Below, one piece after another: positions 2,926-43,460 of a DNA stretch of 64,000 nucleotides (its first letter is position 1; each line of letters begins with the position of its first letter). A program made the position numbers and the translations under genes. Origin of the DNA: Siphonodentalium dalli (taxonomy: Eukaryota > Mollusca > Scaphopoda > Gadilida > Siphonodentaliidae); assembly GCA_032622095.1 (NCBI GenBank), contig CP136062.1, positions 157,102,875 to 157,166,874 on the forward strand. The letters are read 5' to 3'. The notes below the pieces were generated by a model. The model saw only the letters and a program-made list of their open reading frames with translations. It searched no databases and was not told where the DNA came from.

Positions 2926-3183
2926 GGTTCGTTGATGTGTGGCTCGGTCTCAAGTATCACACCACCGCTGGTTGGGAGTGGAACACGGGCACAACACATT
3001 ACAAGGCGCCGACGACATTGTTTGATGCATCACAGACATGTCCAGATTCAGATCCGTCACCTTCATCGTGTCGTGGGAAAACGAATAACTTCGTCACAGA
3101 CAACCATTGGGGGTCGGCGAATTATCCAACAGAGACCCACAAAGTCGTGTGCGAAAAAGATTTGCCTCTTCAAGTTCCCCAAG
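2926..3183 (+). CDS. Gene 1 exon: CTLD-1, C-terminal half
   Basis: The 86-codon exon opens after a pyrimidine-rich AG acceptor and ends at AAG|GTAAGA. It encodes VDVWLGLKYH near the start (the WIGL-type core strand of C-type lectin-like domains), then GWEW, two Cys in the middle, and HKVVCEKD at the end, matching the final Cys of a CTLD. The exon begins with two bases of a split codon and ends with one, so it is a symmetrical phase 1 exon. No EPN or QPD calcium/sugar triplet is visible, so classical mannose- or galactose-type binding is doubtful. The partner exon with the N-terminal half is not in the window. Confidence 0.8.
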
Positions 3184-3559
3184 GTAAGATAGCATGTTCT
3201 GTTAAAGATAAATTCCAACTGCCCAGTATATTTTAATATTGTAGCTTATATGATTTCTCCCAGTTTGGGTGGACAAGACTATATATATAGCATGTTGTTG
3301 ATTGTTCTGAATTTGTGGCTTATTTACACGGCACGACATGAAACAGAAATTAACGTTTCGTGGTAGAAACAAAGAGCGTTAGTCTGACTTCTGGTGAAAA
3401 TTGAAAAGGGCTGAAAAATGGGTGTTACTTTTACAGATATTTATCAGAGCATAATAATGAAGCAGGTATATCAATATTTCGTGTATTTGTCGACCTATCA
3501 TATCCGTCCCTGCAAATTTATAGAAAGGTTTAACTAATCTAAGTTTGTTGTATTTCAAG
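3184..3559 (+). other. Intron of gene 1
   Basis: A 376-bp phase 1 intron between CTLD-1 and CTLD-2. Nothing recognisable is seen in it. Confidence 0.7.
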
Positions 3560-3757
3560 ATTGTAACGCCACCGCCTTCAATGCGGCAACAGCTGGACCC
3601 AGAGAAATATACGTAGTGGGATCGGCGTGTTACTATGGATTTCACGACAATGTGAGGGATTACCACGAAGCGAGCGCGTTATGTGAGGCAGGAAACGCGC
3701 ATCTACTCGCCCTGGAGACGAAATCAGAATGGAATGCTATTCAGTCACTGACCATGT
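3560..3757 (+). CDS. Gene 1 exon: CTLD-2, N-terminal half
   Basis: The exon follows TTTCAAG and ends ACCATGT|GTGAGT. It encodes a first Cys (DCNAT), then SACYYGFHDN, a helix-like YHEASALCEAGNAHLLALE, and ends NAIQSLTM. This is the usual CTLD N-terminal layout: a Cys followed by aromatic residues, then an A..LC...G..L helix. Codon phase (two bases in, one base out) joins exactly to 4635. Confidence 0.85.
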
Positions 3758-4634
3758 GTGAGTTATCCGACGTGCATATATTCATACATATATATGTATA
3801 TACAAACTTGATATTTCTAAAAGGTGTTATTATCTCTTGCAGTTAGTATACCATTGACCAGACCTATACGGCTACCTCCAATGTCCAGGACTACTATATA
3901 TATATATAACCCGTTTCATCCGAGAGTAGTTCTATCGGTCAATCAATACACTAAGCGATGTCAATCAAGTATTGACTTCGTGCCATGTTTGTTTATGTTA
4001 TGCATTTGATGACGCTTGTTTTCGGATTTAGTGGGGTGGGACCAACGGGAGAAATTGTACCGAGTATATTTTATGTTTTGTTTCCAAATAGCGTTCATAG
4101 ATGCATACTTTATTTTTGTTATATGTTATATGCTATATTAATAGCGTATGCTATCGTATGAAGGTAAGTCCGTGCATCATATCACTTTAACATCATAAAT
4201 GTGGCATCAGATACTCATGCTCCCCAGTTGTTGATGGTGAAAGTATCGTAAACATGATAATGTACATGAAGATTACATGTGGCGCGTACTACATCTTGAT
4301 TTTATTTTTCTCATAATGTCCTGAATTACTTCGACTCTTACAAAACCCTGCATGTCAATCATTGAAACAAGCCCGGAGAGAGGCTATATGAGATAATAAA
4401 AACTGATAACACAGACTTGGGTTAAAGCGGGAATAGCACTAACACAAAATTTGGTTGTATACTTTCTTATACATGTATATATGCGCTGTTAATATGCTTA
4501 TATTCTATTCTGATATTGTAATGTTGTATTTATTGTTGTTGTCTTCGGGAGAGGAGGTGGTTAACACTTGTCCTCCAATCATGTCACCATATTATTTTGG
4601 TACATACATTTGTTTAAACCATCTTCATTGTCAG
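3758..4634 (+). other. Intron of gene 1
   Basis: An 877-bp phase 1 intron that splits CTLD-2. It has short AT dinucleotide runs near 3890-3910 and nothing else recognisable. Confidence 0.7.
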
Positions 4635-4883
4635 ACATAGACAACACTTGGTTAGCGGTGCGGTACGACAATTCATCGATGGAGTGGTACTGGGATGATA
4701 AGTCAACAGTGAATAGTATTATCAAACCAACACAATGGTTAATTCCGGCCAGTGGATCTACAGAGACATGTGCATGGACAGTGGCAGTTAGCAAACAACC
4801 ACAATGGTATCAGGCACTGTGTAGTTCAAAAACAGCTTATACCATATGCGAGATGGAACCCTTCGAATCGCAAGCACTGTTCG
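4635..4883 (+). CDS. Gene 1 exon: CTLD-2, C-terminal half
   Basis: The exon follows TTGTCAG and ends CTGTTCG|GTGGGT. It encodes NTWLAVRYDN, then MEWYWDD, a TETCAW segment, QWYQALC and finally AYTICEMEP. These give the W.G/W.A core, the W.W.D loop and the two C-terminal Cys of a CTLD. No EPN/QPD triplet is present; the closest string, KQPQW, lacks the acidic or amide third residue. Phase 1 on both sides. With 3560-3757 it forms a complete domain of about 149 residues. Confidence 0.85.
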
Positions 4884-9697: not shown

Positions 9698-9889
9698 GAT
9701 GTGACCGGAGTTTTTCGGTACAATACAAAGACAGATATAACCTGCAAAGCACCGGAAGTTGTTATTACTCATTCACCGACAAAGCACGTAACTACGCCGA
9801 TGCAAGGGCGCTATGTCGATCAGCGGGCACGAATCTCCTTTTTCTGGAAGATTCCACCGAGAGGACGGGTCTGGCTGGAATGTCGAAGT
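9698..9889 (+). CDS. Gene 1 exon: CTLD-3, N-terminal half
   Basis: The exon follows TTTTATAG and ends TCGAAGT|GTAAGT. It encodes GCDRSFSVQYKDRY near the start, then GSCYYSFTDKARNYADARAL, LCRSAGTNLLFLED and GLAGMSK. This is again the CTLD N-terminal pattern with three Cys. Two bases in and one base out (phase 1) join it to 13416. Confidence 0.85.
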
Positions 9890-12351: not shown

Positions 12352-12384
12352 GTTGATCAGTGCAGCCTGTTCTTCATAAAAGCC

Positions 12385-12661
12385 GCACATTATCTGCTTA
12401 TAAATAACTTATTTTAGGTAGATAATCTGCTTAGAATCGTCTCATTATGAGTCGATTCTAAGCAGATATGTGCGGACAACGACAACTGACGACTTTTCAA
12501 GTGTTTGCTCTTTAACATGTGTTTTCACTGTGGCCCGCGCCATAAAACGAAATAACGGCTACGACTCCATTATCTGCTTATTTCGGAATCAAATAATTAC
12601 ACTATGTACCTATTTCACATTAAAGGTCGATCATGTGCGTATTTATGCCAAGATATGTTGC
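12385..12661 (+). repeat. Dispersed repeat with central palindrome, copy 1
   Basis: It contains a near-perfect palindrome at about 12426-12467: ATCTGCTTAGAATCG, a short centre, then CGATTCTAAGCAGAT. After it comes the phrase CTTTAACATGTGTTTTCACT. The same unit recurs at about 44892-45237. A weaker relative, sharing the phrase GTGTTTTCATTGTGG, lies near 25000-25140. Confidence 0.65.
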
Positions 12662-12663
12662 AT

Positions 12664-12860: not shown

Positions 12861-13080
12861 GACGCTAACCTCTCTCACGTTATCGACGCTAACCTCTCTC
12901 ACGTTATCGACGCTAACCTCTCACGTTATCGACGCTAACCTCTCTCACATTATCGACGCTAACCTCTCTCGCGTTATTGACGTTAACCTCTCTCATGTTA
13001 TCGACGCTAACCTCTCTCATGTTATCGACGCGAACCTCTCTCACGTTATCGACGTTAACCTCTCTCACGTTATCGACGCT
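12861..13080 (+). repeat. 24-bp minisatellite, nine units
   Basis: The unit is GACGCTAACCTCTCTCACGT plus TATC. There are nine units, eight of 24 bp and one of 22 bp, followed by a fragment. Units differ at a few positions. Because 24 is divisible by three, both strands stay open across it, which gives spurious reading frames. The following exon is 335 bp downstream. Confidence 0.95.
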
Positions 13081-13415: not shown

Positions 13416-13634
13416 ATGTGGATCGAGTTTGGCTTGGTTTACGGTATGATACGCCCGGTGTGAGATGGTACTGGGATGATGGTGCCCGTGACATCAGCGT
13501 GGATGCTGCGTCCATACATTGGTCTCCCAGCGACCCTGGTAGCGAATGCGGAGTAACTGACAGCATCACCACTACTGAAACATGGCTCAGCTCAGACTGC
13601 TCACAAAATGCAGCCCATGTGATCTGCGAAGCCT
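13416..13634 (+). CDS. Gene 1 exon: CTLD-3, C-terminal half
   Basis: The exon follows GTCTTCTAG and ends GAAGCCT|GTGAGT. It encodes VDRVWLGLRYDTPGVRWYWD, then HWSPSDPGSECG, TWLSSDCSQN and HVICEA at the end. The split codon T plus AT gives Tyr, as in CTLD-2. The CTLD core, W.W.D loop and last Cys pair are all present. The loop reads SDPGSE rather than EPN/QPD, so standard sugar specificity is not expected. With 9698-9889 the domain is complete. Confidence 0.85.
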
Positions 13635-15735: not shown

Positions 15736-15920
15736 GCTGGCCGAACAGAAACCTGCCCAGTGTATCCGGCTCCTGTCTGCGGCTATACGACAATGTACTG
15801 AGTGCGGCCAGTAGTGCGTTGGATGCAAGGAATTACTGCGAGAGCAGGTCATCTCACCTGGCTAGCTGGCACACAACATCAGACACGGCCGTTATAACAG
15901 AAGAGATGATAGCGAAACAA
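15736..15920 (+). CDS. Gene 1 exon: CTLD-4, N-terminal half
   Basis: The exon follows TTAACAG and ends CGAAACAA|GTAAGT. It encodes GSCLRLYDNVLSAASSALDA, then RNYCESRSSHLASWHTTSDT and EEMIAKQ. The Cys-aromatic start and A...ARNYC...S.HLA helix match a CTLD N-terminal half. It opens in phase 1, but its donor is phase 0, the only non-phase-1 junction in the gene. The next exon at 17972 opens in phase 0, so the frame is kept. Its last 72 bases and donor are repeated twice downstream. Confidence 0.8.
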
Positions 15921-16180
15921 GTAAGTTGCGGATATGTCATCATAAGTTAGCCCAATATTATCGTCATTTCTATATTTAAATCATTTCACCTGGCTAGCTG
16001 GCACACTACACCAGACACAGCCGCGATAACACGAGAACTGTTAACGAAACAAGTGAGTTACGCATGTAGCACCATAAGTTAGCCCATTATTAATGTGATG
16101 TCTACATTTGAATCACCTCATCTGGTTAGCTGGCACACTAATGCAGACAGAGTCGCGATAATACGAGAGACTGCATTCTT
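15849..16180 (+). repeat. 132-bp tandem repeat built from the end of the CTLD-4 exon and its donor
   Basis: Three units start at 15849, 15981 and 16113, exactly 132 bp apart. Unit 1 is the last 72 bases of the exon plus 60 bases of intron. Unit 2 keeps an open frame in the same phase (HLASWHTTPDTAAITRELL...) and an intact donor, AAACAA|GTGAGT. Unit 3 is shorter and has lost the donor. The repeat is therefore an intronic duplication of exon end plus 5' splice site. Confidence 0.9.
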
Positions 16181-17971: not shown

Positions 17972-18095
17972 GTATCGTCCGCGTTCATTGGACTGAACGA
18001 TATCGCACACGAGGGATGCCTCCGATGGACAGACAACTCGACGATCGATCCTTATATAATGGCGGGCATGGTCGGAGTACCAGTGACGACAAGTG
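17972..18095 (+). CDS. Gene 1 exon: CTLD-4, truncated C-terminal half
   Basis: The exon follows ACATGAAG and ends ACAAGTG|GTGAGC. It encodes SSAFIGLNDIAHEGCLRWTD, then NSTIDPYIMAGM and VPVTTSG. The FIGL and W.D elements match a CTLD core. The exon is only 124 nt, against 219-258 nt in the other three, and lacks the last two Cys and the final ICE/VCE strand. Nothing resembling the missing piece is in the 480-bp intron that follows. The domain is either degenerate or retained as a short linker. The acceptor is pyrimidine-poor, so the start is less certain. Confidence 0.65.
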
Positions 18096-18575
18096 GTGAG
18101 CACGAACCCTTTATTTACTTAATTAATTATTCTATAAGTTAATCAGTTATTAATTAAAATGCACATCAGTATGGCCAATTACTCATCGATGAAAATGCGC
18201 GAAAATTATTACAGAATGAGGTCTCCAAATCCCCAGCATCACTACATTCATCATTGGGGACTTCATTCTGCTTTGGCCTAATTTTCTCTGGAAAGTTTCT
18301 TTATTATCAAATTTCTATATAACTTCTTCAGATAGATTCTATTTCTTTTTAGTTTAGTTTCTCTATATCCCCAAATTGGCAGACGACACATTGCATAATC
18401 GAAATTCCCAATATTCGCCATTTGGGAACTCAACCTGAGACTGTGTCTCCAATATCAGATGAGGCCATGCAGAATGAGGTCAACAGAGGGTGAACTTGGT
18501 GATGCTAGCCCGCTATGTGGTGTATCTGCTGTACAATTAGAACATGTTTAAAAGAACAAACATTTCCTCCCACAG
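18096..18575 (+). other. Intron of gene 1
   Basis: A 480-bp phase 1 intron. A short fold-back is visible at about 18212-18270 (AGAATGAGGTCTCCAAATCC against GGGGACTTCATTCT). No CTLD remnant was found. Confidence 0.6.
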
Positions 18576-18695
18576 ACCCGCTCCATTATATCGGTTGCTA
18601 TAGAGACAATACGGACAGAGACTTGAGAGGACCCTACCATAAGCTGTACACAACTAACACCCCGAATGCTTGTGCCGATCTTTGCCGAAATAAAG
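18576..18695 (+). CDS. Gene 1 exon: WSC-1, N-terminal half
   Basis: The exon follows TCCCACAG and ends AAATAAAG|GTGAGT. It encodes PLHYIGCYRDNTDRDLRGPY, then NTPNACADLCRNK. The YIGCY.D...RDL.G opening and the AC..LC pair are the signature of the WSC domain, a Cys-rich module proposed to bind carbohydrate. It is phase 1 on both sides and six bases shorter than the matching exons at 23583 and 52870. Confidence 0.85.
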
Positions 18696-20579: not shown

Positions 20580-20738
20580 GTTTCAGGTTTTTCGGGCTGC
20601 AATTTCGAAAAGAGTGCAGATGTGGCCAAACATACGGTTCATTTGGGCGACTGGACGAGGCAGATTGTAGCATGAGCTGCTCAGGAGATGAGAGTAAGGT
20701 GTGTGGAGGACCATATGCCAACAGTATATATGATTTAT
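20580..20738 (+). CDS. Gene 1 exon: WSC-1, C-terminal half
   Basis: The exon follows AATACTAG and ends GATTTAT|GTGAGT. It encodes FRFFGLQFRKECRCGQTYGS, then GRLDEADCSMSCSGDES and KVCGGPYANSIYDL. The C.CG pair, the DC...C pair and the final CGG...NS.YDL complete the eight-Cys WSC domain begun at 18576. An in-frame stop (TAA) lies just after the donor, so splicing is required. The alternative acceptor six bases downstream would change frame, so the upstream AG was chosen. Confidence 0.85.
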
Positions 20739-21834
20739 GTGAGTAAGGGTGTGTTCCTATTAGTGCCGAAAAGCGGCGGTTCTTCGATTAGAGGACTCGT
20801 CACCTGGATATTTGGAACTGATGATGACATCGGTAAAATTTGACCTTTTAGCATATTACACATCTCCTCAAAACTACATATGCATACACTATATCTTCCT
20901 CTCTTTCTACAACATACATGTATACTATTTAAATGCCTAATTTAACCCTTTGGTTATAACCTTCATTCGGTTTTGTGCATATACGCTCCAAATTAAGTTC
21001 TAAAATATTATTGGCCCAACATCAGGTTACGATCTTAGTAATTCCATTTGTTAACTGGGATGACAGTTCCTTTGCTGTGATTTATAACTATATTTTACTA
21101 TTTAGACCTCTTGCAAAACACTCCATCGTAGTTATCACATGACAAACAGGCAATTGGTTGTTTAGGCCATTTGTCGTAGACGAGTAACAAACTACGTTCA
21201 ATATACATCCGCCCCGCTACATGCGCAATGATATCAAGTATAATTGCTTTTCATTTATTATACGCTTGACATTTTCTGTGATATCAAGCAATTGGAAAGA
21301 ACATCAGTCGTACAATAACTCATGGCATTACGTCGCTATAATAAGCAATACAACAACCGAAGACTATTGAGTAATTCCACAATTGATTGCCAAAAACTCA
21401 AAAGTGTACAAATTATAATTATTTATGAATGATTTCAAGCACATTTGTCATACTATTTTGCGAGCTGTGTAAACGTAACGTAAATCATTATATACCATAC
21501 GTATTTTAAATTTAAAGCGAAAATGTTGCATGTACTCAGGATTACAGTAGAATTGCATCACCATTGTGAAAGTTCCTCCAAAAATAAAACATTTAGGGAA
21601 GCGAATATGATCGAGATAAGACTTAAAACAAGTGGCTGCATACACATTGCCAATAAGGTTATATATATATATATATATATATATCGATAATCTAAACTTC
21701 TTGATTACTTCGTGCCACATAAATGACAATAACATCGTGTGATAGGACCGCGTGGCTAAATTATACATTCCAACTATTCGGCAATTTCTACTATTTAAAG
21801 GGAATTCGATGTTGCATGCCCTGCCAATAACCGT

Positions 21835-21975
21835 ACTGCATGTTTTATTGATTGATTGAGTGTTTATTTGTATAATAGTTACAAGAGTATCACAATGTTG
21901 ATAACAAAACAATAGTATTATAGTGGAGAGGCATGGCCCAGATGTGCCGTCTTCATGTCGGCCATGCATGCTAAC
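21835..21975 (-). repeat. Possible LINE 3' end (minus strand)
   Basis: Read on the minus strand, the segment has ATGAAGACGGCACATCTGGG, a CCACTATAATACTATTGTTT stretch and a short (CAAT)n-AAA tail. A tetranucleotide tail after such a segment is typical of some CR1/L1-like 3' ends. A 173-codon minus frame (21448-21969) runs over it but includes the AT microsatellite and shows no domain. Confidence 0.3.
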
Positions 21976-22253
21976 ACTCAGTGCACATATACGTCGATAA
22001 ATTATATGTTTATCGTCTCATCCGAGATATATGATATAGAGACAGAGCAGGGTACCCTAACTCTAACAATACTAATACCTATCCCCTGTCACGTGCGGAT
22101 AACAATTTATGTTAAATTTTAAAGCATATCTACTTGATATGTACATTATTTGTAGACAATTCGTTGCATATGCTCCATAAAGTGTGCATGCATGTGTCAT
22201 CAGTACGTGACAGTGTATTTGACAAAAAAGCGTAAGGAGTGTATTGTTTATGG

Positions 22254-22342
22254 CAGATGTATCAAGCTGCCTCCTGGCATGTGGTTGCTACCTGTTCCTC
22301 TTTCAACATGGATAACAGGTAGCCGTTGATAAGATACATCTG
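22254..22342. other. 89-nt two-stem hairpin
   Basis: The outer arms CAGATGTATC and GATACATCTG are perfect complements, as are the inner arms GCTACCTGTT and AACAGGTAGC (22287-22323). An asymmetric internal loop separates the two stems. The size is within the range of microRNA precursors, but the large internal loop argues against one. It may equally be a small palindromic repeat. Confidence 0.35.
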
Positions 22343-23365
22343 ATCATTCTGCATGTTTTTTCATAACTGGTGGTCTCGAAATAAACAAGATTCCTGCTAA
22401 CATTTTAAACTATCAAGTGTCACCGAAATATACAATAACACGCACAACCCATTGACGTCACTCTGGACATAGCGTGCTAATTTGCAACGATGGATTAATG
22501 ACGCCACTATATCGATCGATAATTATATGTCAGAGTGACAGCGTGTCTGTTTCAACTATATGTGTGGTTGTCTTCGTAATGTGTGTCTCTCGTGTTACTA
22601 ACTTCTAATTGTGGTGGTTCTTCTGTGAAATAACGGATTAAATGATAAGAAATAACTCTTTGTTGGATTAAGTTTATGAGTAATAAACGAAAAGTGTGAG
22701 GAAACATTTGTCAGTTATAAATGCATAACTTTAATTTAAACAAGAGTTATTTATTAAAGTGATTTGTAACACTCCGGTAGGGTGATGGAATAGAAATGGA
22801 GAATACTCTTGCTCAAAGTAGTTATTCTTTATGAATATAAATCCAAATTTACAACACACACAGTCATTCTTAAATATTAGTTAAATGCAATGAATCTCGA
22901 TGGCGAATAATGGCCATAATCGAGAAGTGAATATTTACAATTGCGCGTAGTTTAGATGATGTTTTAAATGAGTACTACGGTCGATTTCGGTTTTTGAGAT
23001 TTTCGGTGATGTTTGTAGAATTCTACATCCCCCAGTTGGCACAGCGCCTGATTACGAACGTATCAGTACCACGCGCCCGAACAAGTCCAATATATGTCTT
23101 CAAATAATCGAAACTATATATGAGATGATTGGATGCATAGTTACTTGTATGTCAGACAATATATGTATATTGCTTTGGTGTTGGCAATGTTTACTCCAAA
23201 CTAGGTATTGTATCTAAATAAGCAAGCATGCATGAATGGACGCGAACCCGGCACATATGTGCATCTATTTGTAAAGATATATTAATATTAATACTAAGTC
23301 AAAATACATAAATTTAAACCTCAAATTATTCAGAGTAACCATGTTCCCGAATCTTCATTTTCGAA

Positions 23366-23430
23366 ACCATATCCATAACCATAACCCTAACACTAACCCA
23401 AACACCAACGTAACCCCAACCCTAACACAT
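23366..23430 (+). repeat. Degenerate CCCTAA-like simple repeat
   Basis: A run of AACCCTAAC, ACTAACCC and AACCCCAACC variants without a fixed period. It resembles a decayed interstitial telomere-like tract or a simple repeat. Confidence 0.45.
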
Positions 23431-23582
23431 TCCAAATTGAGAAATAACACACCAGTGGGATCGGGCGGGGCGGACCACTCCCGCATAATGCACGGACAAG
23501 TAAATTCCATTATAATATGTGGAAGTATGTATGATAACATGTACTGTTTCACTGTATATACTTAATGTATTCGCAATTGCAG

Positions 23583-23708
23583 ACGGTTCTTACCCATTAC
23601 AATATATCGGTTGCTATAGTGACAGATCGGACAGAGATTTAGACGGATCCCTCACAGAACCGACGAACATTTCCCTGAACGCATGTGCAGATATTTGTCG
23701 AGATAAAT
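23583..23708 (+). CDS. Gene 1 exon: WSC-2, N-terminal half
   Basis: The exon follows CAATTGCAG and ends GATAAAT|GTAAGT. It encodes YPLQYIGCYSDRSDRDLDGS, then LTEPTNISLNACADICRDK. It is phase 1 on both sides and 126 nt, the same length as the cassette 2 exon at 52870, which it resembles more closely than it does WSC-1. Confidence 0.88.
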
Positions 23709-24523: not shown

Positions 24524-24894
24524 TTAACCCCTTATCCAACAAAGCGGCCAAACACGCCCAAATAAAGCTTCAACAGCCTAAAATATCTTCGGTCTGTCTC
24601 AATAACACCATACAAATATGGATATCATTGGAACCGGTTCATTGACCACATTGTGATGATTACATTTATGCCCTGTGCCAATGCATTCTCTTATATATGC
24701 GAGTCGACCATAGGTTTTTTTTCTTACATTTTTTAACATTTTTTATAATATTTTTCTACATTCTTTGACAATTTTATCATTTTTAATATGTGTTAAGTCA
24801 ATGCATTCTCTATATATGCGAGGCGACCTATGGTCGACTCGCATATATAAGAGAATGCATTGGCACAGGGCCGTTCTGTTGGGTAAAGGGTTAA
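24524..24894 (+). mobile_element. piggyBac-like palindromic MITE, copy A (first hairpin damaged)
   Basis: TTAA sits at both ends (24524-24527 and 24891-24894). The terminal inverted repeats are CCCCTTATCCAACA on the left and TGTTGGGTAAAGGG on the right. It contains CCCTGTGCCAATGCATTCTC and the second hairpin, complete but for a small deletion in the left arm. The first hairpin lacks its right arm, replaced by a T-rich run. TTAA duplication plus CCC-type ends is characteristic of piggyBac-superfamily elements; there is no coding capacity. Confidence 0.85.
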
Positions 24895-25197
24895 GGGAAC
24901 GGAGAAGTACATTCTCATTCTGTATCATAAGCTCAATATGAACCTATTTAAAACGAGATACGTCCAATATGGCGCTATCTGTGTTACTGTTCAAGCATAT
25001 TTACCGTGATAATGTGTTTTCATTGTGGCTAGAGCAATTCAACGGAAAAACGCGTATAATTTAGAATAAAAAGACCAATATTAATCTATTTGAATATGGA
25101 TGATGCATATGAACCTATTTGCACCAAGATATGTTGGCATACTAACTTGTATCTTGGCATGAACAATGCCTACAATTGCCGTATATCTTTATACCAG

Positions 25198-25359
25198 GTT
25201 TCAGATTTGCTGGGCTACAATATGGCAGTCAGTGCTTCTGTGGTCAGACGTACGGTAGATATGGACAAAAAGCTGAAGCTGATTGTAGCATTGCGTGTCC
25301 AGGAGATCCGAACGTAATGTGTGGAGGAACATGGGCCAACAGCATGTATGATTTAGCAT
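25198..25359 (+). CDS. Gene 1 exon: WSC-2, C-terminal half
   Basis: The exon follows TTATACCAG and ends TTAGCAT|GTGAGT. It encodes RFAGLQYGSQCFCGQTYGRY, then EADCSIACPGDPNVMCGG and WANSMYDLA. It supplies the C.CG, DC...C and CGG elements of the WSC domain. Phase 1 on both sides, 162 nt, equal to the cassette 2 exon at 56150. An in-frame TAA follows the donor directly. Confidence 0.88.
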
Positions 25360-26028: not shown

Positions 26029-26151
26029 CGAGCCTACCAGAACCCGTGCAGACGAATGACTGTTATGTTCTCAGAGACAGCTCTACTTTGACTAACGTCC
26101 CTTGTTGTGATGTTCCCATGGCACCAGTGACGTCAGTACTGTGTGAATACG
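26029..26151 (+). CDS. Gene 1 exon: 41-residue Cys module of unknown family
   Basis: The exon follows ACGCACAG and ends GAATACG|GTGAGT. It encodes SLPEPVQTNDCYVLRDSSTL, then NVPCCDVPMAPVTSVLCEY. It has four Cys (C, CC, C) and is phase 1 on both sides. I do not recognise a named domain. The cassette 2 exon at 58070-58192 has the same length and phase, and the two differ at about nine of 41 residues by eye. The Cys pattern and the MAPVTSVLCEY-type end are conserved, so it is a real coding module, probably disulphide-stabilised and placed between WSC and the chitin-binding-like exon. Confidence 0.85.
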
Positions 26152-33694: not shown

Positions 33695-33757
33695 AGATTG
33701 CCCCACCTCTCGTTGCTGATGCCATCATGGTCGACAATTGCAACGGGATGCAATCAG
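33695..33757 (+). CDS. Gene 1 exon: 21-residue micro-module
   Basis: The exon follows ATTCTTCAG and ends CAATCAG|GTGAGC. It encodes IAPPLVADAIMVDNCNGMQS with one Cys. The split codon with the previous exon gives Glu. The same 63-nt exon with the same phases is at 60590-60652, five residues different by eye. It is too short to name as a domain and probably forms a linker between the 41-residue module and the chitin-binding-like exon. Confidence 0.8.
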
Positions 33758-35034
33758 GTGAGCATCTTTACCTTTCTTTATTGCATAGATTTTCCAATTA
33801 CATTGGACTCGTGTAATATCCATTTGGCGTAATAGTCAGAAAAAATTATACCCCGCCAATGTGGCTTTTCACAATGGTATGGCCATGTTCCGACTTTCCA
33901 GATGACGTGACTCATGCTCATGTTTTCACAATTAGCACACAACTGTAACAGATGTTTAATTTAGACGGGCTGAGAGTATATACGTAAATAGGTAACGTGA
34001 TTACAACTGGGCACTGTTCAATCAATTTGATGCTACTTGGAACAGGGCTAAATCTGTCAATATTAAAAAACTATCAAATACATGAACTGCCAACAATAGA
34101 TGGAATAATGTGGTGCCGGTAGGAAGCAACTGTTAATTGGAGAAACAGTCGCTTCAAAAGGAAAATAATATTTCATAATAACATCCTGTTAAATTAACTA
34201 CTTTTAAAGGAATAATTCATAAATATGCACACGAGAAGGCGTTTTTGGTCAAACTTTCAGAGCTGGTATATTTGTGAACCAAGTGAGAGGTGCCATTGTT
34301 ACTGTTTACATTATTTGGGTAATGAGACAGTTACATGTTTGAGAACTGAGATGTTGTGCAGAAATATGGTCTGGAAAATGGGATCTGATCTTTATCCACT
34401 CCTGGCATTACCATTACCATCACACGTTGGGATCGTTGGTCTCACAACTGATGCATATGGATTAAGATGGAAATTGCATAACTCATCGGGTTCTCTTGCA
34501 GCGTACATCATTCCACATACATATACAGGGCTATTATTGACATTCCCTGTCTGATCATGGTCAGCCTCATCTAACATCTCTCCATGGCTTAATATGTTAT
34601 TACTGGATACTGTTACTGTTGACCACCTACAATTTGTACATGGTACACTAGATCTGATAACTGTGTACATGCGGATAATGTTCCCACATATTTTCTACTA
34701 ATCTTGAAGGAATCGCATTTTTAGATAATGGTTTATAAATGGTTTACTAAATTTCCAATATTGTACAACGGACGCCTCATATGTTTGTGAGAAACCACAT
34801 TCTGCCGTTATGTTGCCAACTTAGCATATTCGCTAAATATGTTGCAACTACCATTCGTGTCCTTCCACAACTTACTTATTGGTATTGTGAAATATCTCCT
34901 GACTACAACCATATAAATGTACAGGACATGTATTTCTACACGATCGACAGGTATTTGGAATGGTGTGAGATAACGACCCATTATAATCTCACAACTTGAT
35001 TCAAACTATACGAATGTCCCAATATATAAAACCA

Positions 35035-35411
35035 CAAACTCAGATATTCGTGTTCGGTTCTTAACGAAACCTCACACGTCTTACTCCCAGCGAAGACATA
35101 CACACAATGAAGATGGCTCCCAAATATGGTCAAGGGAGATGACCATAACGGAGGAATTGTATTGCCCAACGCCTCATCTAATATGCATCCCAAATAGTAT
35201 ATAAGAAACAACCACATCCCATCACCTTATGCTTTCACTAGACTCATCTCATCTCGAGGTTATCTCCAGGCATCACCCACACCAGGCATCACCCATTCGG
35301 GGACCTCACTTCGCGGCGACTCTTGATCATCATATTTGTACACACTGCATATCTTATTCACAACATAATAAAGACTTGTACCTACTATATCTATGTGTTC
35401 ATTACCTCACA
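35035..35411 (+). repeat. 5' long terminal repeat
   Basis: 377 bp that match 40339-40726, starting CAAACTCAGATATTCGTG and ending TTACCTCACA. Five substitutions and one replaced block (about 35146-35156) separate the two by eye. A TATATAAG box lies at 35198 and AATAAA at 35367. A possible primer-binding site, TGGTACCGTGAACAG, starts at 35421. Its offset from the LTR end is larger than usual, and I cannot name the tRNA. Confidence 0.9.
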
Positions 35412-35599
35412 TAGTATTAATGGTACCGTGAACAGTTCTACGTCTTACCACACAACTTGAAGTCTCGGCCACTAGACGATCACTGCAGAGCAGAAACAAT
35501 CTCAAACCGCTACTCAACCACGGGGATACAGGTTTACACTCCAGCCACGGAGAGACAGCCTCACACACTAGACCACTGCATCGGTCAACTATAACTCAA

Positions 35600-35775
35600 C
35601 CCTTCGGACACACAGGACCGCACACCAACCCTTCGGACACACAGAACCGCCTACCAACCATTCGGACACACAGGACCGCATACCAACCCTTTGGACACAC
35701 AGGACCGCATACCAACCCTTCGGACACACAGGACCGCACACCAACCCTCCGGATACACAGGACCGCATACCATAC
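35600..35775 (+). repeat. 29-bp tandem repeat in the retrotransposon leader
   Basis: About six units of CCTTCGGACACACAGGACCG plus nine more bases, with period 29. Single-base differences separate units. It lies between the 5' LTR and gag. Confidence 0.85.
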
Positions 35776-36023
35776 TCATCTGATATAGACGAATCAACCT
35801 TTTGTTCTCATACAACCAGCTCACATCGTGTATCCAGCTAAAAAAACATTACTCACTCCTCTTGCAGACCAGATTCAGATCCACATAAACATTAACAACC
35901 GATTTGGACACCCTTCTGTTTCCAATAAACACGACAATAACATTATGTACATCATTCATCATCACAGACTTGTGCACATTATTCTTCTCGGAAATTGGTG
36001 AGTGACCATCTTTTCTTTCCCAT

Positions 36024-36452
36024 TTGCTGTCAAATTGCACACCCCCTATTTTTAGCATGTTTTTACTCCTTTTGTTTTTCACGTGGGTTATGGACACATC
36101 ACCTGATTCTACTACACCTACACTACCTACCCATCCTACTACAATACATGCTTCGAACGATCAGCCCATACCACCCACCTCTCACAAACAACATTCAGTT
36201 CTTAATTGTAAAACTGACTGTAGATACGCTTTACCCCACCAAATAACTTTATCGCCACAACTCATTAAATATTGCAATCCCATTCGCATTGATATAACGC
36301 ACGATACAATCTGCTTATACGTGCGTTGTATGATTACAAATAACTACTCAGGACATACACTAGATTCTTGGAACGAGTGGCATACATTTCCGGCTCATTT
36401 TACGGATTATCCAAAACTTATTGTCAACTCTATAGTCGTGGCAATTCCATAA
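36024..36452 (+). CDS. Upstream open frame in the retrotransposon leader
   Basis: A 142-codon ATG frame precedes gag. It opens with a hydrophobic stretch, PIFSMFLLLLFFTWVM, that could be a signal or membrane segment. A Thr/Pro/Ser-rich part with five spaced Cys (CTPP, NCKTDC, KYC, LYVRC) follows. It resembles no retrotransposon protein I know. It could be chance, a remnant of an extra gene, or a captured host exon. Confidence 0.3.
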   Translation: MLSNCTPPIFSMFLLLLFFTWVMDTSPDSTTPTLPTHPTTIHASNDQPIPPTSHKQHSVLNCKTDCRYALPHQITLSPQLIKYCNPIRIDITHDTICLYVRCMITNNYSGHTLDSWNEWHTFPAHFTDYPKLIVNSIVVAIP

Positions 36453-36722
36453 AACATGCTAATAAATCACCTGAATCGTGTCAAATACACCTGAATCGCA
36501 TAATACACCGCCACGGCACTTGGAAAAAAATACAACATATTTCGCACCCGTACCATAGATTCCAAAACAGACACTGTTAATCCTTAATAACATAATGTAG
36601 TCACCACCTCCGCAGATCAGTGATTATTTTCATCCAAGCCAAAGTTATCAGCATCACCTTGAATTAAACAGGGAAACGGACCGATCAACCGCAAGATCCC
36701 CCACACAGACATTACTAATGAA

Positions 36723-37737
36723 ATGGGCAAAGATACTCAAAACTTGCTATTGTCACGGCTTACCCATGCACTTAGCCATTTCACTAGTTCTATCCGCGAC
36801 CAGACAGATAGTTTAAAAACACAAACAACGATAACAGCACTTTTGGGTATGAATTATATTATTGAACCCTTCGACGGCAAATCTGACGCTTTTCCCCAAT
36901 GGGTCCATGCGGTGTAAAAATACTCCCGCGCGATTTCGGCACAAGATGAGACTATCATAAAAATTGCCGCTCAAACATGTAAATCTCAAGTTTCTGAATT
37001 TATTCAACTCTTCATAAATGAAAATAACACGGACGGAAAATTCACGTTCACCTGGACAGATCTGAAATCACAATTACGCTCATTATTCAGTTCCATAACC
37101 GATTCGCCTCAAGCCCTTTCCTCATTACGAGCCATTAGGCAGAGACATGCGGAAACAATTGCCATGTTTGCAGAACGCATACGTACCCTTGCTAAACACG
37201 CGTTTACTGATGAAATTAACACAAGAGCAGTACAAACACAATTAGTAGCATTTTTTCCGACGGTATTCGCGACTCTAGTATTAAATTCAGGCTTCTCGAA
37301 GATGACCCCGTAACGCTTGATAGAGCTACTGATATTGCCCTACGCGAAATGAACCTTCGGCAACGCTATCGCTTACGTTACAGTGAACATCATAATGATT
37401 ATAACCAATTCCCACAGTTACAATCCCCTCAACCAATGGATATCGACAATAACCACCGGCACATTCCAAGAGGGCCATCACAATCCACTTACAACCCCCG
37501 CCAATCCAAAGACAGACACCGAATCAATGATCACCCCACAGGCGCCAACCTTCAAATTCTCACCACCCCTACTCTGCACCAAGGGTCTCCCATCCAAACC
37601 GCATCCAAACCATGGATGCAAGATATGCTACAACACCTCAGCAACCCCTCTTCTGTACATACTGCAGATTAAACAACCATACCACAGACCAATGCAGACG
37701 TCGGGCTCAAAATAATAACCAATTTTTAAACAGATAA
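36723..37737 (+). pseudogene. gag remnant with CCHC zinc knuckle
   Basis: The capsid-like part begins near 36723 (YIIEPFDGKSDAFPQWVHAV) and meets a stop at 36915. It continues in the same frame (SLFSSITDSPQALSSLRAIR) to about 37255, where a T run marks a frame change. The next part (37349-37672) is Gln/Pro-rich. In a third frame, 37651-37737 encodes CTYCRLNNHTTDQC, a perfect C-x2-C-x4-H-x4-C knuckle, followed by a stop. With at least one stop and two frame changes this copy cannot make a normal Gag. Confidence 0.8.
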
Positions 37738-38337
37738 GGACTCATTCCTACACAAATTTGACCCCAAGTAGACACAACGCAATGAGTCCAATTACACATC
37801 AAATTAGCACCATAGGCGGCCACAATCATAGATATGCTAAAGCTCATCGAACATACGAATCTCAAAAGCATAGAGTCTATAATTCACAGCTGCAGCCCAT
37901 TAATCATTACCCCACGCTACCATCAAAGTGTCAAAACCAACGATATATTAATTACTGCACGCGGCGCCTACTTAATCTTCCTCGCCGCAGGCAGGTCACA
38001 CATACTACCAACTGCAATAACAGGTGTCCCTCTATGAAATCCATATTTCATAATATTTCCAATAAGCCTCTATTACCTCTTCTTGACTTAAACTTTCCTT
38101 CCCAATTTAAAACCGTGAATCGCCTTGAAAAACCAAGGCACCAACAAATTACTAATTCTCAGTCATCATCCAAAAGAAAGTGAACATGCGCCAATTCTCG
38201 CGAATCACATTCCAATACTGCAATTAACCCTGTAATACCACCATTAAAACCCATACAACACACAATACCAGTACTTAAATATCCAAGCGATATGACAGAT
38301 GGTGCTCTAAAACTAAACACCATGCTCAACTATCATT

Positions 38338-40368
38338 AAAATACACAAACAACGCATTCGCTCACTATTAGATTCGGGAGAATCCACCAGTTGCTTGAAA
38401 TACGACATTTATAGATCCATACCAAATCGACCACCTTTAATTAAAGAACATGTGTTACTCACATCAGCCGATGGAACACCAATGAAAGTGTTTGGATCCA
38501 CACATCTCACATTTAGAATCGGAAAACTCATTCTTACTCACACATTTGTAATATGTGCAACCTTGTCCCGTCCCTGCATTTTAGGGCGCGACTTTATGAA
38601 ACAACACAGTATTAGACTTTACTTTGATCTAGAAAAATTCAGAATACAGAATCAATTATACCCAATGTTAAGGGACGGTCACATTGCATCACTCATCCGA
38701 TCAACAAATAACGTTTCATTATCACCCCACTCATGCGCGATCATAACAGGCAGACTCATAGGGCCAAATGATATGTTTAACACACCTATAATCCGAATAG
38801 GCAAAGGTAACATGTCCATTTTCGAACAGGAACCAAATGTACATGTAACCGACACGATAGCAGATGCAAATAATCCAAATATTTGCGTCATGATAGAAAA
38901 TCAATCGGCGTCACATATGTCCATTAGGAAAGGTCGTGTAATAGCACAAGCATTTGGCACTCAAGAGCAAATGATATGCAGGACATCCGATGAGGAAAAC
39001 ATTAACTCATCTCCGCCAACCAAACACAGTATAAACACCATAGGTGACCGGCAAGACTTTAACCCTCCAGTCACCAAGACTCAACCTATATCTATCGATG
39101 ATATCGTGGCACCTCAACACCTTAAACAGCAAATATTGCAACTAGTATCACAATACCCTGATGTTTTTACAAATGACATAAACAAGATAGGATATTGTCC
39201 AAAAATTAAAATGAAAATCGACCTCAAACCAAATACTTTACCTATTTTTTGCAAAAAATATCCAACACCACTTAACAAACAACGAATTATGGCTGCTGAG
39301 ATAAAAAAATTATTAGATGCAGACATTATTAAACCCACTGCCCATTCATCATGGGGATTTCCCAGTCTCCTCATACGCAAATCCACACCCAACCCCGATA
39401 GTACCCCCAATTACCGATTGGTAATTGATCTGAGAAAACTCAATGATGTTTCCATTCCATTAAAATGGTCTATGCCTAGTTTTACAGAAATATCGTCCAA
39501 GTTACTCGGCTCAACTATTTTCAGTATCTTTTATTTATCAAATGCTTACCATGTTATAGGAGTCGAACCTGAACTTGTACCCATATTAACTATGAATACG
39601 TCGGAAGGACAATACAGTTATCAAAGAGCCCCGATGGGATATGTCTCGAGCTCAGGGTATTTTTTAAAACTCATGAACATGGCCCTACATGATTTCCCGT
39701 TTGTAGAAGGATTTGTCGATGACCTGATCTGTCATAGCTCCGATCCTCAAACGCATATACAGCAGCTCACAAAATTGTTTGACAGACTCAGGGAATACGG
39801 CTTAATAGTTAAACTATCAAAATCTAAATTTTGCCAACCACAAGTCAAATTTTTAGGACATATTATTTCCGACAAGGGCACATCCCCTGACCCTGAAAAA
39901 ATTTCAATTATCAAGTCTCTACCACCTCCGAAATCAGTTAAAGAAGTCCGCAGATTACTTGGAATTCTTAATTTTTACAGATCATATTCTCCTACTTTCG
40001 CATCCACGGCATTGCCTTTAATCAAACTCACAGCCAAATATGCTAAATTTGTGTGGGATGCGCCATGCCAAACAGCGTTTGACACGCTTAAAGAAAGCTT
40101 AGCAACCGCCCCCATTTTAGCTTACCCAAATCCCGACAAACTGTTCATTCTTACAGTTGATGCAGCTATCCATAGTATCGGGGCAATACTATCACAATAT
40201 GCTAATAGCCAAGATGATAAACACGTTGAACTACCAATCGCGTTCGCCAGTAAAAAAAACTTAACAAATCACAAAGTAATTATTCTGTCACGGAAAAAGA
40301 AGCATTCGCTATATATACGTTTGCAAGGCAATTTAAAACAAACTCAGATATTCGTGTTCGGTTCTTAA
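38338..40368 (+). pseudogene. pol: retropepsin, reverse transcriptase, start of RNase H
   Basis: One frame stays open from about 38338 to 40368. It has the protease active site SLLDSGES (about 38362-38385) and flap-side ILGRDF. Then come the RT motifs YRLVIDLRKLND, AYHVIGV, RAPMGY, FVDDLICHS and KFLGHIIS, then LGILNFYRS, and the RNase H opening FILTVDAAIHSIGAILSQ. In RT motif A the usual catalytic Asp position holds Tyr (FSIFYLSNAYH), so polymerase activity is probably lost. The frame shifts near 40290 and ends inside the 3' LTR. Integrase is absent. Confidence 0.92.
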
Positions 40369-40726
40369 CGAAACCTCACACGTCTTACTCCCAGCGAAGA
40401 CATACACACAATGAAGATAGCTCCCAAATATGGTCAAGGGAGATGACCATAACGGAGGAACCAATCCCGATGTGTATTTCCAAACGCCTCATCTAATATG
40501 CATCCCAAATAGTATATAAGAAACAACCACATCCCATCACCTTATGCTTTCACTAGACTCATCTCATCTCGAGGTTATCTCCTGGCATCACCCACACCAG
40601 GCATCACCCATTCAGGGACCTCACTTCGCGGCGACTCTTGATCATCATATTTGTATACACTGCATATCTTATTCACAACATAATAAAGACTTTTACCTAC
40701 TATATCTATGTGTTCATTACCTCACA
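40339..40726 (+). repeat. 3' long terminal repeat
   Basis: 388 bp, partner of 35035-35411. It differs by about five substitutions and a block near 40450-40471 that makes it 11 bp longer. It begins immediately after the RNase H-like sequence with no polypurine tract between, so the end of the internal region has been deleted. Confidence 0.9.
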
Positions 40727-41026: not shown

Positions 41027-41284
41027 CAGTTCGAATTGAAATCCGACGGCCCATTATTACAAATGAACGTCGGAACGACCGCCCATGTAAACATATTTCA
41101 AAAGCCGCGGGGATTTCCCGGTAGCGAGGTTTGTAAGTGAGGATTGTCGTGATGTTTCTAAATATGGATACTTTATGCATGTTAATCATTCCGGTAAAAT
41201 ATCTAACTGTTCCGACTTTAATACGGAATACGGTAGTACGGTAATGAACGTAGTATACATACCGTCTGATTTCAATTCGAACTG
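41027..41284. mobile_element. MITE with 23-bp inverted ends
   Basis: The ends CAGTTCGAATTGAAATCCGA (41027-) and CAGTTCGAATTGAAATCAGA (minus strand from 41284) differ at one base over 23. The 258-bp element is non-coding; the minus-strand frame across it has no domain. It ends 54 bases before the acceptor of the next exon. Cassette 2 lacks it. Confidence 0.7.
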
Positions 41285-41338
41285 GAAACGATGATAAACT
41301 CAATTAAATAAACCAATGCACATTATGTTATATTACAG

Positions 41339-41554
41339 CCAATCTGTGTCTGGAAAAATGCTGGAGTGAGATGGAAGGAAACTTTGCAAGTTGTAATGTG
41401 TCGGAGTGTGACATATACACTGAGTGTAACGGCGCAGAAACATACAGTCGAGTGTGTCCGTGGGGAGAGATGTTCAACACCACGTCAAAAGTATGCGAGT
41501 TTTCAGTGCCATATTACAGCGAAACTATATATACCAAACATTACACGGACACGG
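41339..41554 (+). CDS. Gene 1 exon: chitin-binding type-2-like (peritrophin-A/CBM14-like) module
   Basis: The exon follows ATATTACAG and ends GACACGG|GTGAGT. It encodes NLCLEKCWSEMEGNFASC, then SECDIYTECNGAETYSRVCP, WGEMFNTTSKVCEF and a Tyr/Thr-rich end. The C.IY.EC......CP.G..FN....VC core matches the peritrophin-A spacing, with extra Cys in front. Members of that family bind chitin, often through aromatic residues. It is phase 1 on both sides, 216 nt, like the exon at 61220, and differs from it at about seven of 71 residues by eye, the most conserved module of the pair. Confidence 0.82.
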
Positions 41555-42885
41555 GTGAGTGATATAACAAAGATTACACGGGCGGGTGGTTGGATACCAA
41601 TCCGATCACAATACGGAATATACGTTATGGACATGGTTACTCTTGCTTAACGCTGTCTACGCTAAAGGACATTGATGAGTAGTAATTATCACATTGGAAC
41701 TGTTCAGATAGTAAGTTCAACACACGGCCATAGTATGTCTTTTGAACTTGTTATATAAACATTTCCTTGTGGGATCTTCTGCACATTTTATTAGCTGTCG
41801 TCTGCTTTTATCACCTTATCCTCCAACATCAATCTTAGACAATTCAGATATACATTGTTAAGTTACTGGGATAATCAATTTATTGTAGAAAGGTTAAGTT
41901 CTATTGACTGCTATGACAATAGACGAGAAGAAAAACAGTTTAAACCCAAGCATAATCAATTGTGTCAGCTTTTTCAACCCAACACATGGAGTGATGTTTA
42001 AAACTACCGGAAATTAAAACTTATTATATACACTTTAAAAAAATATTTCAATGTGTTTGATTAAGGTGAGCGATTTGGAAGCGCCTAAGAGTACGTGTTA
42101 CCAGGACTGCTGAAACATACATGTAGCTCTTCTAAAGTCTTACATGCTAAAGACTGGACAATAAAGCATGAAGTGTGATTCACGCTGTTTCGACTGCGAC
42201 AGATGCAATACGAATTATCTTGCTAATGATTACTATCTATATACGTATCCCATGTAACAAGGACTCTTGACACGATCACTATTGAAATATTTAAAGTTCG
42301 ATATAGTTTCACACAGCTTGTCTTACTTTGGTAGACCATTTCTGATTAACTTATAGCCAGCATACTGTTGTGAAAAGGCGATATTATACCAACATTCCCG
42401 CTATTTGTTTTTACCAATTAATAATGTTCACACAATGGTAAGATTGTTTTTTGTTTAGTTGGGATTTTACATCGTTTTAGTCGTTAGGCCACATCACGAG
42501 GAAGATAGACTGAATCAGAATCAAACAAGGCAACTGTGTATAGACGTAACCGTGAAGAAGACTAAAATGAAACTAAATATTTGCAAATAAAAATACCCAA
42601 ATCAGAGCGAGAGTGCTCGGTTGGGGTCAGAACCATTAAGAAACTGACCAGTGTGCAAACACATAAAAAACAGACTATCCAAAAAAAGAAGAAGCAGTAA
42701 CACTGCTTTGAGAACAGCCACAATGGTAAGACTCAGTGACAAGGCATTGTATATTTTAGTACATATTCCTCTGTACTTATAGTATGTGACCATGTAGCAA
42801 CCATTTCTCATAGCAGCATGGGGATAGATAAAACAAGACTATCTAATGGGATAAATATGTATATTGTCGGTACATCTTATTACAG
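41555..42885 (+). other. Intron of gene 1 (1.3 kb), homologous to cassette 2
   Basis: Phase 1 intron. Several stretches are alignable with 61436-64000. One is AACATTTCC...CTTCTGCAC (about 41758-41790 against 61912-61945), and another is AATTGTGTCAGC (about 41958 against 63848). A dispersed repeat copy occupies about 42455-42690. No exon inside. Confidence 0.65.
42455..42690 (+). repeat. Dispersed repeat, copy 1 (partner at 49745-49990)
   Basis: Shared order of phrases: ATCGTTTTAG, GTTAGGCCACATCACGA, AATCAGAAT, GGCAACTGTGTAT, and GAAACTGACCAGTGTGCAA near the end. This 'CGTTTTAG...GGCC.TATCACGA' type of repeat is familiar to me from mollusc genomic sequence. Confidence 0.55.
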
Positions 42886-43460
42886 GAACTGGCAACATTA
42901 TCCAGCTGGAAATGTCCACAATGACTTGCACCAACGACACAACAACAACGACGACGACGAAAACAACAACAACGTCGACAACAACAACAACGATGACGAC
43001 AACTTCGACAACAACAACTACAACGACCACACCGGTACCGACAGTACCCGGGATTATGAAGCCAGACCAGGCGAAGATGATGAAACATTGTCTGTGCAAA
43101 CATATCACAACGACTCAGAAACCAACAACAACACCAGTTCCAACAACACCTGTCCCAAGCTCCACTTTATCCACTACTATGCTTCATCCTACCACCCAGT
43201 CGCCACCAACAACAACAGTCGACCAAATTAAGGCGATGCAAAAAGCCATCGTAGATCATCTGCTGTTGGACAGGAAAACCCTCAGTAAATATCGCCGGAA
43301 GCAGTTCACAGCGCCGGACACCGAGTCATCCAACAACCTGGCTGGGTCCGTCTCTGTTATTGGCTTGTTTTCTGTCGTGGGACTTCCGGTTCTGATGGAT
43401 GCGATCACCGTAGCGTATTTCGTGTGGAAGAAACTGAAAGCGATTGCGTTGCCCACTTGA
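42886..43460 (+). CDS. Gene 1 terminal exon: Thr-rich stalk, membrane segment, stop
   Basis: The exon follows TCTTATTACAG, opens in phase 1 and ends with TGA at 43458-43460, giving 190 residues. After TGNIIQLEMSTMTC comes a stretch of about 60 residues that is almost all Thr, from an ACA/ACG-rich repeat. After it come KHITTTQKPTTTPVPTTPV and more Thr/Ser/Pro, which suggests dense O-glycosylation. Near the end, SVSVIGLFSVVGLPVLMDAI plus TVAYFVW forms one hydrophobic span (about 43344-43430), followed by KKLKAIALPT. This predicts a type I membrane anchor with a very short basic tail and no visible signalling motif. Confidence 0.88.

What the first reader, a model, noticed from the sequence alone, without database searches (positions are those of the whole stretch)
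2926..43460. A phase-1 module train joining lectin-like, WSC and chitin-binding-like units to a mucin-type membrane anchor
Fourteen of the fifteen placed exons begin with two bases of a split codon, and all but one end with one, so almost every module can be duplicated, skipped or exchanged freely. The order CTLD(n)-WSC(2)-two short Cys exons-CBM14-like-Thr stalk-TM is not an architecture I know by name. It suggests a rapidly evolving surface receptor for glycans or chitin.
Basis: partly seen in the sequence, partly recalled or inferred. Interest (0 to 1): 0.75.

Follow-up and report, generated by a model that had tools for sequence, protein, structure and literature searches.

The report
Modular lectin-like membrane protein gene, duplicated
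A stretch of animal DNA appears to encode a cell-surface protein built from lectin-like, WSC and chitin-binding-like modules on a threonine-rich stalk, with a partial second copy next to it; the parts and their exon phases are ordinary for animal surface proteins, and only the combination may be new.

Summary
Fifteen + strand exons (2926-43460) can be placed; 14 of 15 begin with two bases of a split codon and 13 of the 14 with a donor end with one. Joined, they match Pfam Lectin_C (three of four CTLD units), WSC (5.8e-22, 1.4e-20) and CBM_14 (8.3e-6), followed by a Thr-rich stalk, one predicted TM helix and a ~10-residue tail. That supports exons and phases, and shows purifying selection rather than rapid change. 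The CTLDs lack [EQ]P[DN] and W[NS]D motifs and CTLD-d lacks its last third, so 'glycan receptor' is only partly supported. Phase 1-1 trains are the rule for shuffled extracellular modules (passages of PMC8001218), and complete CTLD and WSC modules here take two exons each. Joining of CTLDs to the WSC-TM part is untested. No collection of eukaryotic genomes or proteomes could be searched, so novelty of the architecture stays open.

The parts
2926..3183 (+). CTLD-a, C-terminal half exon (WLGLKY..VVCE); N-half not found in the window
   Evidence: open 1-1 exon, donor score 7.3; matches a C-half profile made from a, b and c together (partly circular); no Pfam hit on its own
3560..3757 (+). CTLD-b N-half exon
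   Evidence: splice sites and frame; with next exon Lectin_C 1.3e-13
4635..4883 (+). CTLD-b C-half exon
   Evidence: Lectin_C 2.1e-6 as the ORF alone
9698..9889 (+). CTLD-c N-half exon
   Evidence: with next exon Lectin_C 2.4e-10
13416..13634 (+). CTLD-c C-half exon
15736..15920 (+). CTLD-d N-half exon, ends in phase 0
   Evidence: with next exon Lectin_C 4.7e-7 over profile 4-63 of 107
17972..18095 (+). CTLD-d second exon (FIGLND..RWTDNS), starts in phase 0; last third of the domain not found
   Evidence: only three tiny 1-1 candidates with poor sites in 18096-18575
18576..18695 (+). WSC-1 N-half exon
   Evidence: WSC 5.8e-22 with next exon
20580..20738 (+). WSC-1 C-half exon
   Evidence: weak acceptor
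23583..23708 (+). WSC-2 N-half exon
   Evidence: WSC 1.4e-20 with next exon; conserved in copy B
25198..25359 (+). WSC-2 C-half exon
26029..26151 (+). short Cys exon 1, no Pfam domain
   Evidence: conserved in copy B with both splice sites
33695..33757 (+). short Cys exon 2 (63 nt), no Pfam domain
   Evidence: conserved in copy B with both splice sites; frame set by neighbours
41339..41554 (+). CBM14-like exon
   Evidence: CBM_14 8.3e-6, 26.3 bits against cut-off 22.1; 92.5% nt identity to copy B
42886..43460 (+). last exon: Thr-rich stalk (48 Thr in the first 113 residues), CLC motif, juxtamembrane segment, predicted TM, ~10-residue tail, stop
   Evidence: no Pfam hit
52870..52995 (+). copy B: WSC N-half exon
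   Evidence: 83.7% nt identity to 23583-23708, same boundaries
56150..56311 (+). copy B: WSC C-half exon
   Evidence: 83.6% nt identity to 25198-25359; WSC 5e-18 in the joined B exons
58070..58192 (+). copy B: short Cys exon 1
   Evidence: 81.7% nt identity
60590..60652 (+). copy B: short Cys exon 2
   Evidence: 81.7% nt identity
61220..61435 (+). copy B: CBM14-like exon
   Evidence: 92.5% nt identity; CBM_14 0.00015, 22.3 bits against 22.1 in the joined B exons; 7e-6 as the ORF alone
63723..63900 (+). copy B: intron patch matching 41837-42009 between CBM14 and stalk exon of A; suggests that B's stalk/TM exon lies just beyond the window
   Evidence: 76% over 178 columns, E 2.3e-26

Best explanation
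Gene A (2926-43460, its 5' end lying before the window) encodes a modular type I membrane protein of an invertebrate animal: at least four C-type-lectin-like units, two WSC domains, a short Cys-rich linker, one CBM14-like unit, a Thr-rich (probably O-glycosylated) stalk, one TM helix and a minimal cytoplasmic tail. It most likely works as a tethered, multivalent adhesion or capture molecule of the cell surface: WSC and CBM14-like modules contact polysaccharide or chitin-like material, the CTLDs act mostly as protein or Ca-independent contacts, and the stalk holds them away from the membrane. The gene grew by phase 1-1 exon(-pair) shuffling and duplication, and its 3' half was later duplicated in tandem (52870 onward). 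Shown by computation: open exons with splice sites, phases, domain matches, a hydrophobic TM-like segment, copy B and purifying selection between A and B. Inferred: joining of all exons in one transcript, animal group, O-glycosylation, ligands, function.
For: Fifteen same-strand exons with compatible phases; Pfam Lectin_C, WSC twice, CBM_14; PDB sequence matches by phmmer: CTLD-b best to NKG2-D (2.2e-8, summed over two weak stretches) and Dectin-1 (2.4e-7), WSC-2 to Kremen 1 (1.2e-13), CBM14 exon weakly to a chitinase's C-terminal stretch (0.0063); of 7 rows in a scan for phase-1 terminal exons with a TM-like stretch, 42886-43460 is the one with a long stalk-like ORF that I accept; copy B keeps 10 of 10 exon boundaries, no indel, dN/dS about 0.35.
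Against: No transcript, and no signal peptide exon that I accept in the window. CTLD-d is cut short, unexpected for an intact module just upstream of WSC-1. An in-frame ATG with a hydrophobic stretch directly before WSC-2 (23531) would fit an independent start; exons 9698 and 13416 also have in-frame hydrophobic extensions (for 13416 the listed donor lies inside the exon), which weakens that sign. No CTLD or second WSC exon was seen before copy B. No AATAAA/ATTAAA lies within 740 nt after A's stop (the first is at 44448). The fold prediction of the CBM14 exon failed (pLDDT 43).
Confidence: 0.6

Rival explanations
1. Two neighbouring genes: a CTLD-WSC-1 gene whose end lies in 20739-23530, and a short gene starting in the WSC-2 exon (ATG 23531, signal-peptide-like) that runs WSC-Cys-CBM14-stalk-TM; copy B would be a second short gene.
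For: 23531-23708 is the only signal-like start with a strong phase-1 donor on the + strand; no CTLD or WSC-1 exon was seen in the 9.4 kb before copy B (the listing was cut at its weak end); the A/B homology at this exon reaches 68 nt upstream of the acceptor.
Against: In the A/B DNA alignment the upstream stretch has a 5-nt gap, which would shift the frame; the ungapped protein alignment through it has 3 of 17 residues alike by my count; copy B's extension does not pass the relaxed hydrophobicity scan; only one weak terminal exon with a TM-like stretch falls in 20739-23530 (23036; terminal exons without TM were not scanned); WSC-1 and WSC-2 exons are phase-compatible.
Confidence: 0.2
2. One transcription unit with two interchangeable 3' cassettes: transcripts splice from WSC-1 (20738) either to WSC-2 of A or to the WSC of copy B, giving two membrane forms.
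For: Copy B starts in phase 1 with an intact acceptor, keeps its frame under selection, no start exon was found for it in 43461-52869 by the relaxed scan, and A's stop is not followed by AATAAA/ATTAAA for 740 nt.
Against: 19 AATAAA/ATTAAA sites lie farther on, 44448-52333, which is little evidence in A+T-rich DNA; a short undetected 5' exon for B is the simpler reading; B's own last exon lies outside the window.
Confidence: 0.1
3. A decaying locus: gene A and/or copy B is a pseudogene.
For: CTLD-d truncated; a tandem repeat copies the end of its N-half exon; a retrotransposon sits in an intron; copy B has no visible 5' part.
Against: The 20 placed exons of A and B are open with splice sites; A/B differences at codon positions 1, 2, 3 are 24, 25 and 49 of 230 each, dN/dS about 0.35.
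Confidence: 0.08
4. A polycystin-1 (PKD1) family member, since PKD1 also joins WSC and CTLD.
For: Fish PKD1 proteins carry WSC and a C-type lectin domain with PKD repeats (passages of PMC5318412); human PKD1 has both too (passages of PMC1934368).
Against: Order is reversed (CTLD before WSC), there is a CBM14 unit, and the gene ends in one TM-like segment with a short tail; no PKD, REJ, PLAT or channel match in the assembled exons at E<=1. The part upstream of the window was not seen.
Confidence: 0.01

Closest known systems
Multi-CTLD membrane lectins of bivalves, e.g. ScCTL-1 (four CRDs, C-terminal TM; passages of PMC12842671)
   Same: several CTLDs in a row with a C-terminal TM anchor; unusual sugar motifs
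   Different: here WSC, CBM14-like and Thr stalk are added and [EQ]P[DN] / W[NS]D are absent; 'WSC' and 'chitin-binding' occur 0 times in the main text of that review
Polycystin-1 (passages of PMC5318412 and PMC1934368)
   Same: WSC and CTLD in one ectodomain
   Different: other order, PKD repeats, REJ, PLAT, channel domain; none here. In the sea urchin REJ relatives CTLDs (REJ1-3) and WSC (REJ6, 7, 10) are in different proteins
Kremen (closest solved relatives of the WSC domain)
   Same: WSC domain; single-pass membrane protein (recalled)
   Different: Kringle-WSC-CUB, no CTLD or CBM14 (recalled)
Class 1-1 modular extracellular proteins made by exon shuffling (passages of PMC8001218)
   Same: nearly all introns phase 1, symmetric exons, extracellular modules, membrane anchor
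   Different: most modules here are split in two by a further phase-1 intron, and one CTLD uses a phase-0 intron
CBM14 / peritrophin-A proteins (a chitinase)
   Same: Pfam match above the curated cut-off
   Different: match stops at position 47 of 53, single unit, weak sequence match

Membership tests
C-type lectin-like domain (PF00059) | profile match above the curated cut-off over a full domain | tested here: met
   CTLD-b 52.1 and CTLD-c 41.5 bits against 22.6, full length; CTLD-d 30.9 bits but only positions 4-63 of 107; CTLD-a (half) no hit. Met for 2 of 4 units over the full length
Ca-dependent sugar-binding C-type lectin | [EQ]P[DN] and W[NS]D motifs | tested here: not met
   0 of 4 CTLDs have either pattern; only these two patterns were searched; CTLD-a and -d are incomplete; some bivalve lectins bind with other motifs (passages)
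WSC domain (PF01822) | profile match over the full domain | tested here: met
   78.1, 73.7 and 65.6 bits against 27.8, positions 1-82 of 82, in WSC-1, WSC-2 and copy B
CBM14 / peritrophin-A (PF01607) | profile match above cut-off with six cysteines | tested here: inconclusive
   26.3 bits (A) and 22.3 bits (B) against 22.1, but positions 3-47 of 53, so the end of the profile is outside the match; fold model unusable
Chitin-binding protein | binds chitin | not testable with these tools
   no binding data
Single-pass type I membrane protein with mucin-type stalk | signal peptide, Ser/Thr/Pro-rich stalk, one TM helix | tested here: inconclusive
   48 Thr, 7 Ser and 12 Pro in the first 113 residues of the last exon and a hydrophobic 19-mer; signal peptide not found in the window
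Polycystin-1 / REJ family | PKD repeats, REJ, PLAT, multiple TM | tested here: not met
   no such Pfam match in the assembled exons at E<=1; upstream part not seen
Class 1-1 shuffled module gene | introns at module borders in phase 1 | tested here: met
   14 of 15 exon starts and 13 of 14 donors in phase 1
One gene joining CTLDs to WSC-TM | transcripts joining them | not testable with these tools
   no cDNA

The most novel reading that the evidence does not exclude
The locus is a single gene with a fixed lectin-like N-terminal part and two (or more, beyond the window) interchangeable membrane-anchoring 3' cassettes (WSC-Cys-CBM14-stalk-TM), chosen by alternative splicing, in an architecture (CTLDn-WSC2-CBM14-mucin stalk-TM) not described before.
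Probability: 0.08. Interest if true: 0.55.

Novelty: new member of a known kind. Interest (0 to 1): 0.28.

Why it matters
If confirmed by cDNA, it is one more case of animal surface proteins built by phase 1-1 exon shuffling, with an unusual mix of carbohydrate-related modules on a mucin-like anchor, and a tandem copy of its 3' half in which to study how such modules diverge. It does not open a new class of system.

Tried and rejected
A first strict splice scan found only 4 exons on + and 0 on -; looser thresholds were needed. HMMs made from the window's own CTLD halves found no further CTLD half except a weak hit (E 0.15) that led to the CTLD-d N-half. Search of the source assembly: none held. 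Rfam (gathering scores) and tRNA scans: nothing. Minus-strand ORFs as other genes: 8 of the 26 minus ORFs were tested; 0 of 8 have a Pfam match above cut-off. Four + ORFs without match: 62602-62958, 34216-34554, 59086-59523 and 51834-52127. A missing last exon for CTLD-d in 18096-18575: only three tiny candidates with poor sites. AlphaFold model of the CBM14 exon from two sequences: pLDDT 43, not used, no fold search made.

Literature (held open-access library only): 'WSC domain' + 'C-type lectin' + 'chitin-binding' gave 0 papers (with 'transmembrane' and 'domain architecture' also 0); 'WSC domain' + 'CBM14' gave 0; 'WSC domain' + 'mollusc' + 'C-type lectin' gave 1 paper, whose passages name the two in separate table entries. 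Broader searches returned many papers of which only the listing was seen, apart from those named; so WSC-lectin combinations in papers that I did not open (for instance the fungal genome paper PMC3192844 in the listing) are not excluded. Passages, not whole texts, were seen of PMC4581086, PMC5318412, PMC1934368, PMC8001218, PMC10855680, PMC9894429, PMC12842671 and PMC514892; PMC10855680, PMC9894429 and PMC514892 added nothing that I use. Pfam and the PDB were searched, but no collection of eukaryotic genomes or proteomes was available, so I do not claim that the architecture is unpublished. That the juxtamembrane segment resembles tails of uncharacterised molluscan proteins is recalled only, no call supports it, and the host is therefore not named.
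Full report
WHAT IS THERE. The window reads like animal DNA with long introns, 35-43% G+C in 2-kb steps. On the + strand fifteen exons between 2926 and 43460 were placed from open frames, splice sites and domain matches. They encode, in order: the C-half of CTLD-a; CTLD-b (two exons); CTLD-c (two exons); CTLD-d (two exons, incomplete); WSC-1 (two exons); WSC-2 (two exons); two short Cys exons; a CBM14-like exon; a last exon with a Thr-rich stalk, a TM-like segment and a stop.

PHASES. Fourteen of 15 exons start with two bases of a split codon and 13 of the 14 with a donor end with one; the exception is the phase-0 intron inside CTLD-d. Within 15 nt of each boundary the chosen site is the best scoring one at 14 of 15 starts and 13 of 14 donors; at 20580 and 20738 the copy-conserved sites were preferred to a better scoring neighbour. 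The same scan gave 15 open 1-1 stretches with score >=12 on + and none on -; of the 15, 11 are exons of gene A or copy B exactly, two overlap such exons with another start, two (56902-57228, 62651-62926) are not in the model. With the looser cut-off of 6 it gave 23 on + and 8 on -, so the contrast lies in the strong candidates. Some symmetric exons are also open in another frame (five 0-0 stretches on +); domain matches settle the frame for CTLD, WSC and CBM14 exons, while that of the two short Cys exons rests on their neighbours and copy B. Phase 1-1 modules are the rule for shuffled extracellular domains (passages of PMC8001218), so the pattern confirms the gene rather than being a surprise.

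DOMAINS. With exons joined, Pfam gives Lectin_C 1.3e-13 (b), 2.4e-10 (c) and 4.7e-7 over positions 4-63 of 107 (d), nothing for a; WSC 5.8e-22 and 1.4e-20; CBM_14 8.3e-6; nothing for the last exon. The nearest solved sequences are NKG2-D and Dectin-1 for CTLD-b, Kremen 1 for WSC-2 and, weakly, a chitinase for the CBM14 exon. No CTLD has [EQ]P[DN] or W[NS]D, the motifs tied to Ca-dependent sugar binding; the same review reports lectins that bind with unusual motifs (passages of PMC12842671), so binding is not excluded. The first 113 residues of the last exon hold 48 Thr, 12 Pro and 7 Ser.

THE SECOND COPY. A self-comparison showed that WSC-2, both Cys exons and the CBM14 exon recur at 52870-61435 in the same order. 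Nucleotide identity is 82-93% per exon, there are no indels in 690 nt, the 10 boundaries coincide, and dN is 0.113 against dS 0.319 over the five exons. An intron patch after the CBM14 exon (41837-42009) recurs at 63723-63900, so the stalk/TM exon of B probably lies just past the window. No CTLD or second WSC exon was seen before copy B (the weak end's list was cut). Copy B is the strongest evidence that these exons are real, and it argues against rapid evolution of this half of the protein; the CTLD half could not be tested.

ONE GENE OR TWO. No signal peptide exon was found apart from in-frame hydrophobic extensions of three exons; one of them (23531, before WSC-2) looks signal-like and has a strong donor. 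The A/B DNA alignment needs a 5-nt gap in this stretch, which speaks against coding. No AATAAA or ATTAAA lies within 740 nt after A's stop; the first follows at 44448. Joining of CTLDs to WSC-2 and TM is therefore likely but unproven. CTLD-d lacks its last third and no acceptable exon for it lies in the 480 bp before WSC-1.

MECHANISM. Best reading: a tethered surface adhesion or capture protein with polysaccharide-contacting WSC and CBM14-like modules, lectin-like domains that probably do not use the classical calcium site, and a mucin-like stalk. Exons, domain matches, the TM-like segment and selection on the 3' half are shown by computation; ligand, glycosylation, expression and function are inferred.

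KNOWN OR NEW. Each element is known. Polycystin-1 joins WSC and CTLD in another setting (passages), and bivalve lectins with several CTLDs and a C-terminal TM exist (passages). I found no paper in the held library with 'WSC domain', 'C-type lectin' and 'chitin-binding' together or 'WSC domain' with 'CBM14', but could not search eukaryotic genomes or proteomes. I file it as a new member of a known kind, with the architecture's novelty open.

Noticed in passing
61423-61743: 33-bp minisatellite that overlaps the 5' splice site of copy B's CBM14 exon and repeats it: six GT sites scoring above 1.5, the first at the exon's own end. Reading past the first donor soon meets TGA (ORF end), so use of a later donor would truncate the protein.
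   Followed up: partly
15849-16173: 132-bp tandem repeat (2.5 copies) made of the end of the CTLD-d N-half exon with its donor; two donors score 5.8 and 5.1.
   Followed up: partly
35034-40726: LTR retrotransposon with reverse transcriptase match (RVT_1 5.8e-21, piece 39400-39900) in the intron between 33757 and 41339; LTR-like ends 35034-35411 and 40338-40726 are 95% alike over 389 columns with 11 gap positions; related fragments at 54798-54941 and 55045-55131.
   Followed up: partly
about 24524-24896, 51350-51737, 52296-52697, 55579-55979, 59378-59771, 63297-63698: Family of palindromic, MITE-like elements in both orientations, some pairs 99% alike, five of the six in or near copy B.
   Followed up: no
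41837-42009 and 63723-63900: Intron patch 76% alike between the two copies; apart from exon flanks, repeats and one 63% stretch (41529-41818), blastn found no other matching intron sequence. Possible regulatory element.
   Followed up: no
12436-12660 and 44998-45234: Dispersed repeat, 81% alike over 237 columns.
   Followed up: no
54188-54648, 57496-57909, 12861-13080, 35597-35772: Minisatellites of 51, 64, 24 and 29 bp.
   Followed up: no
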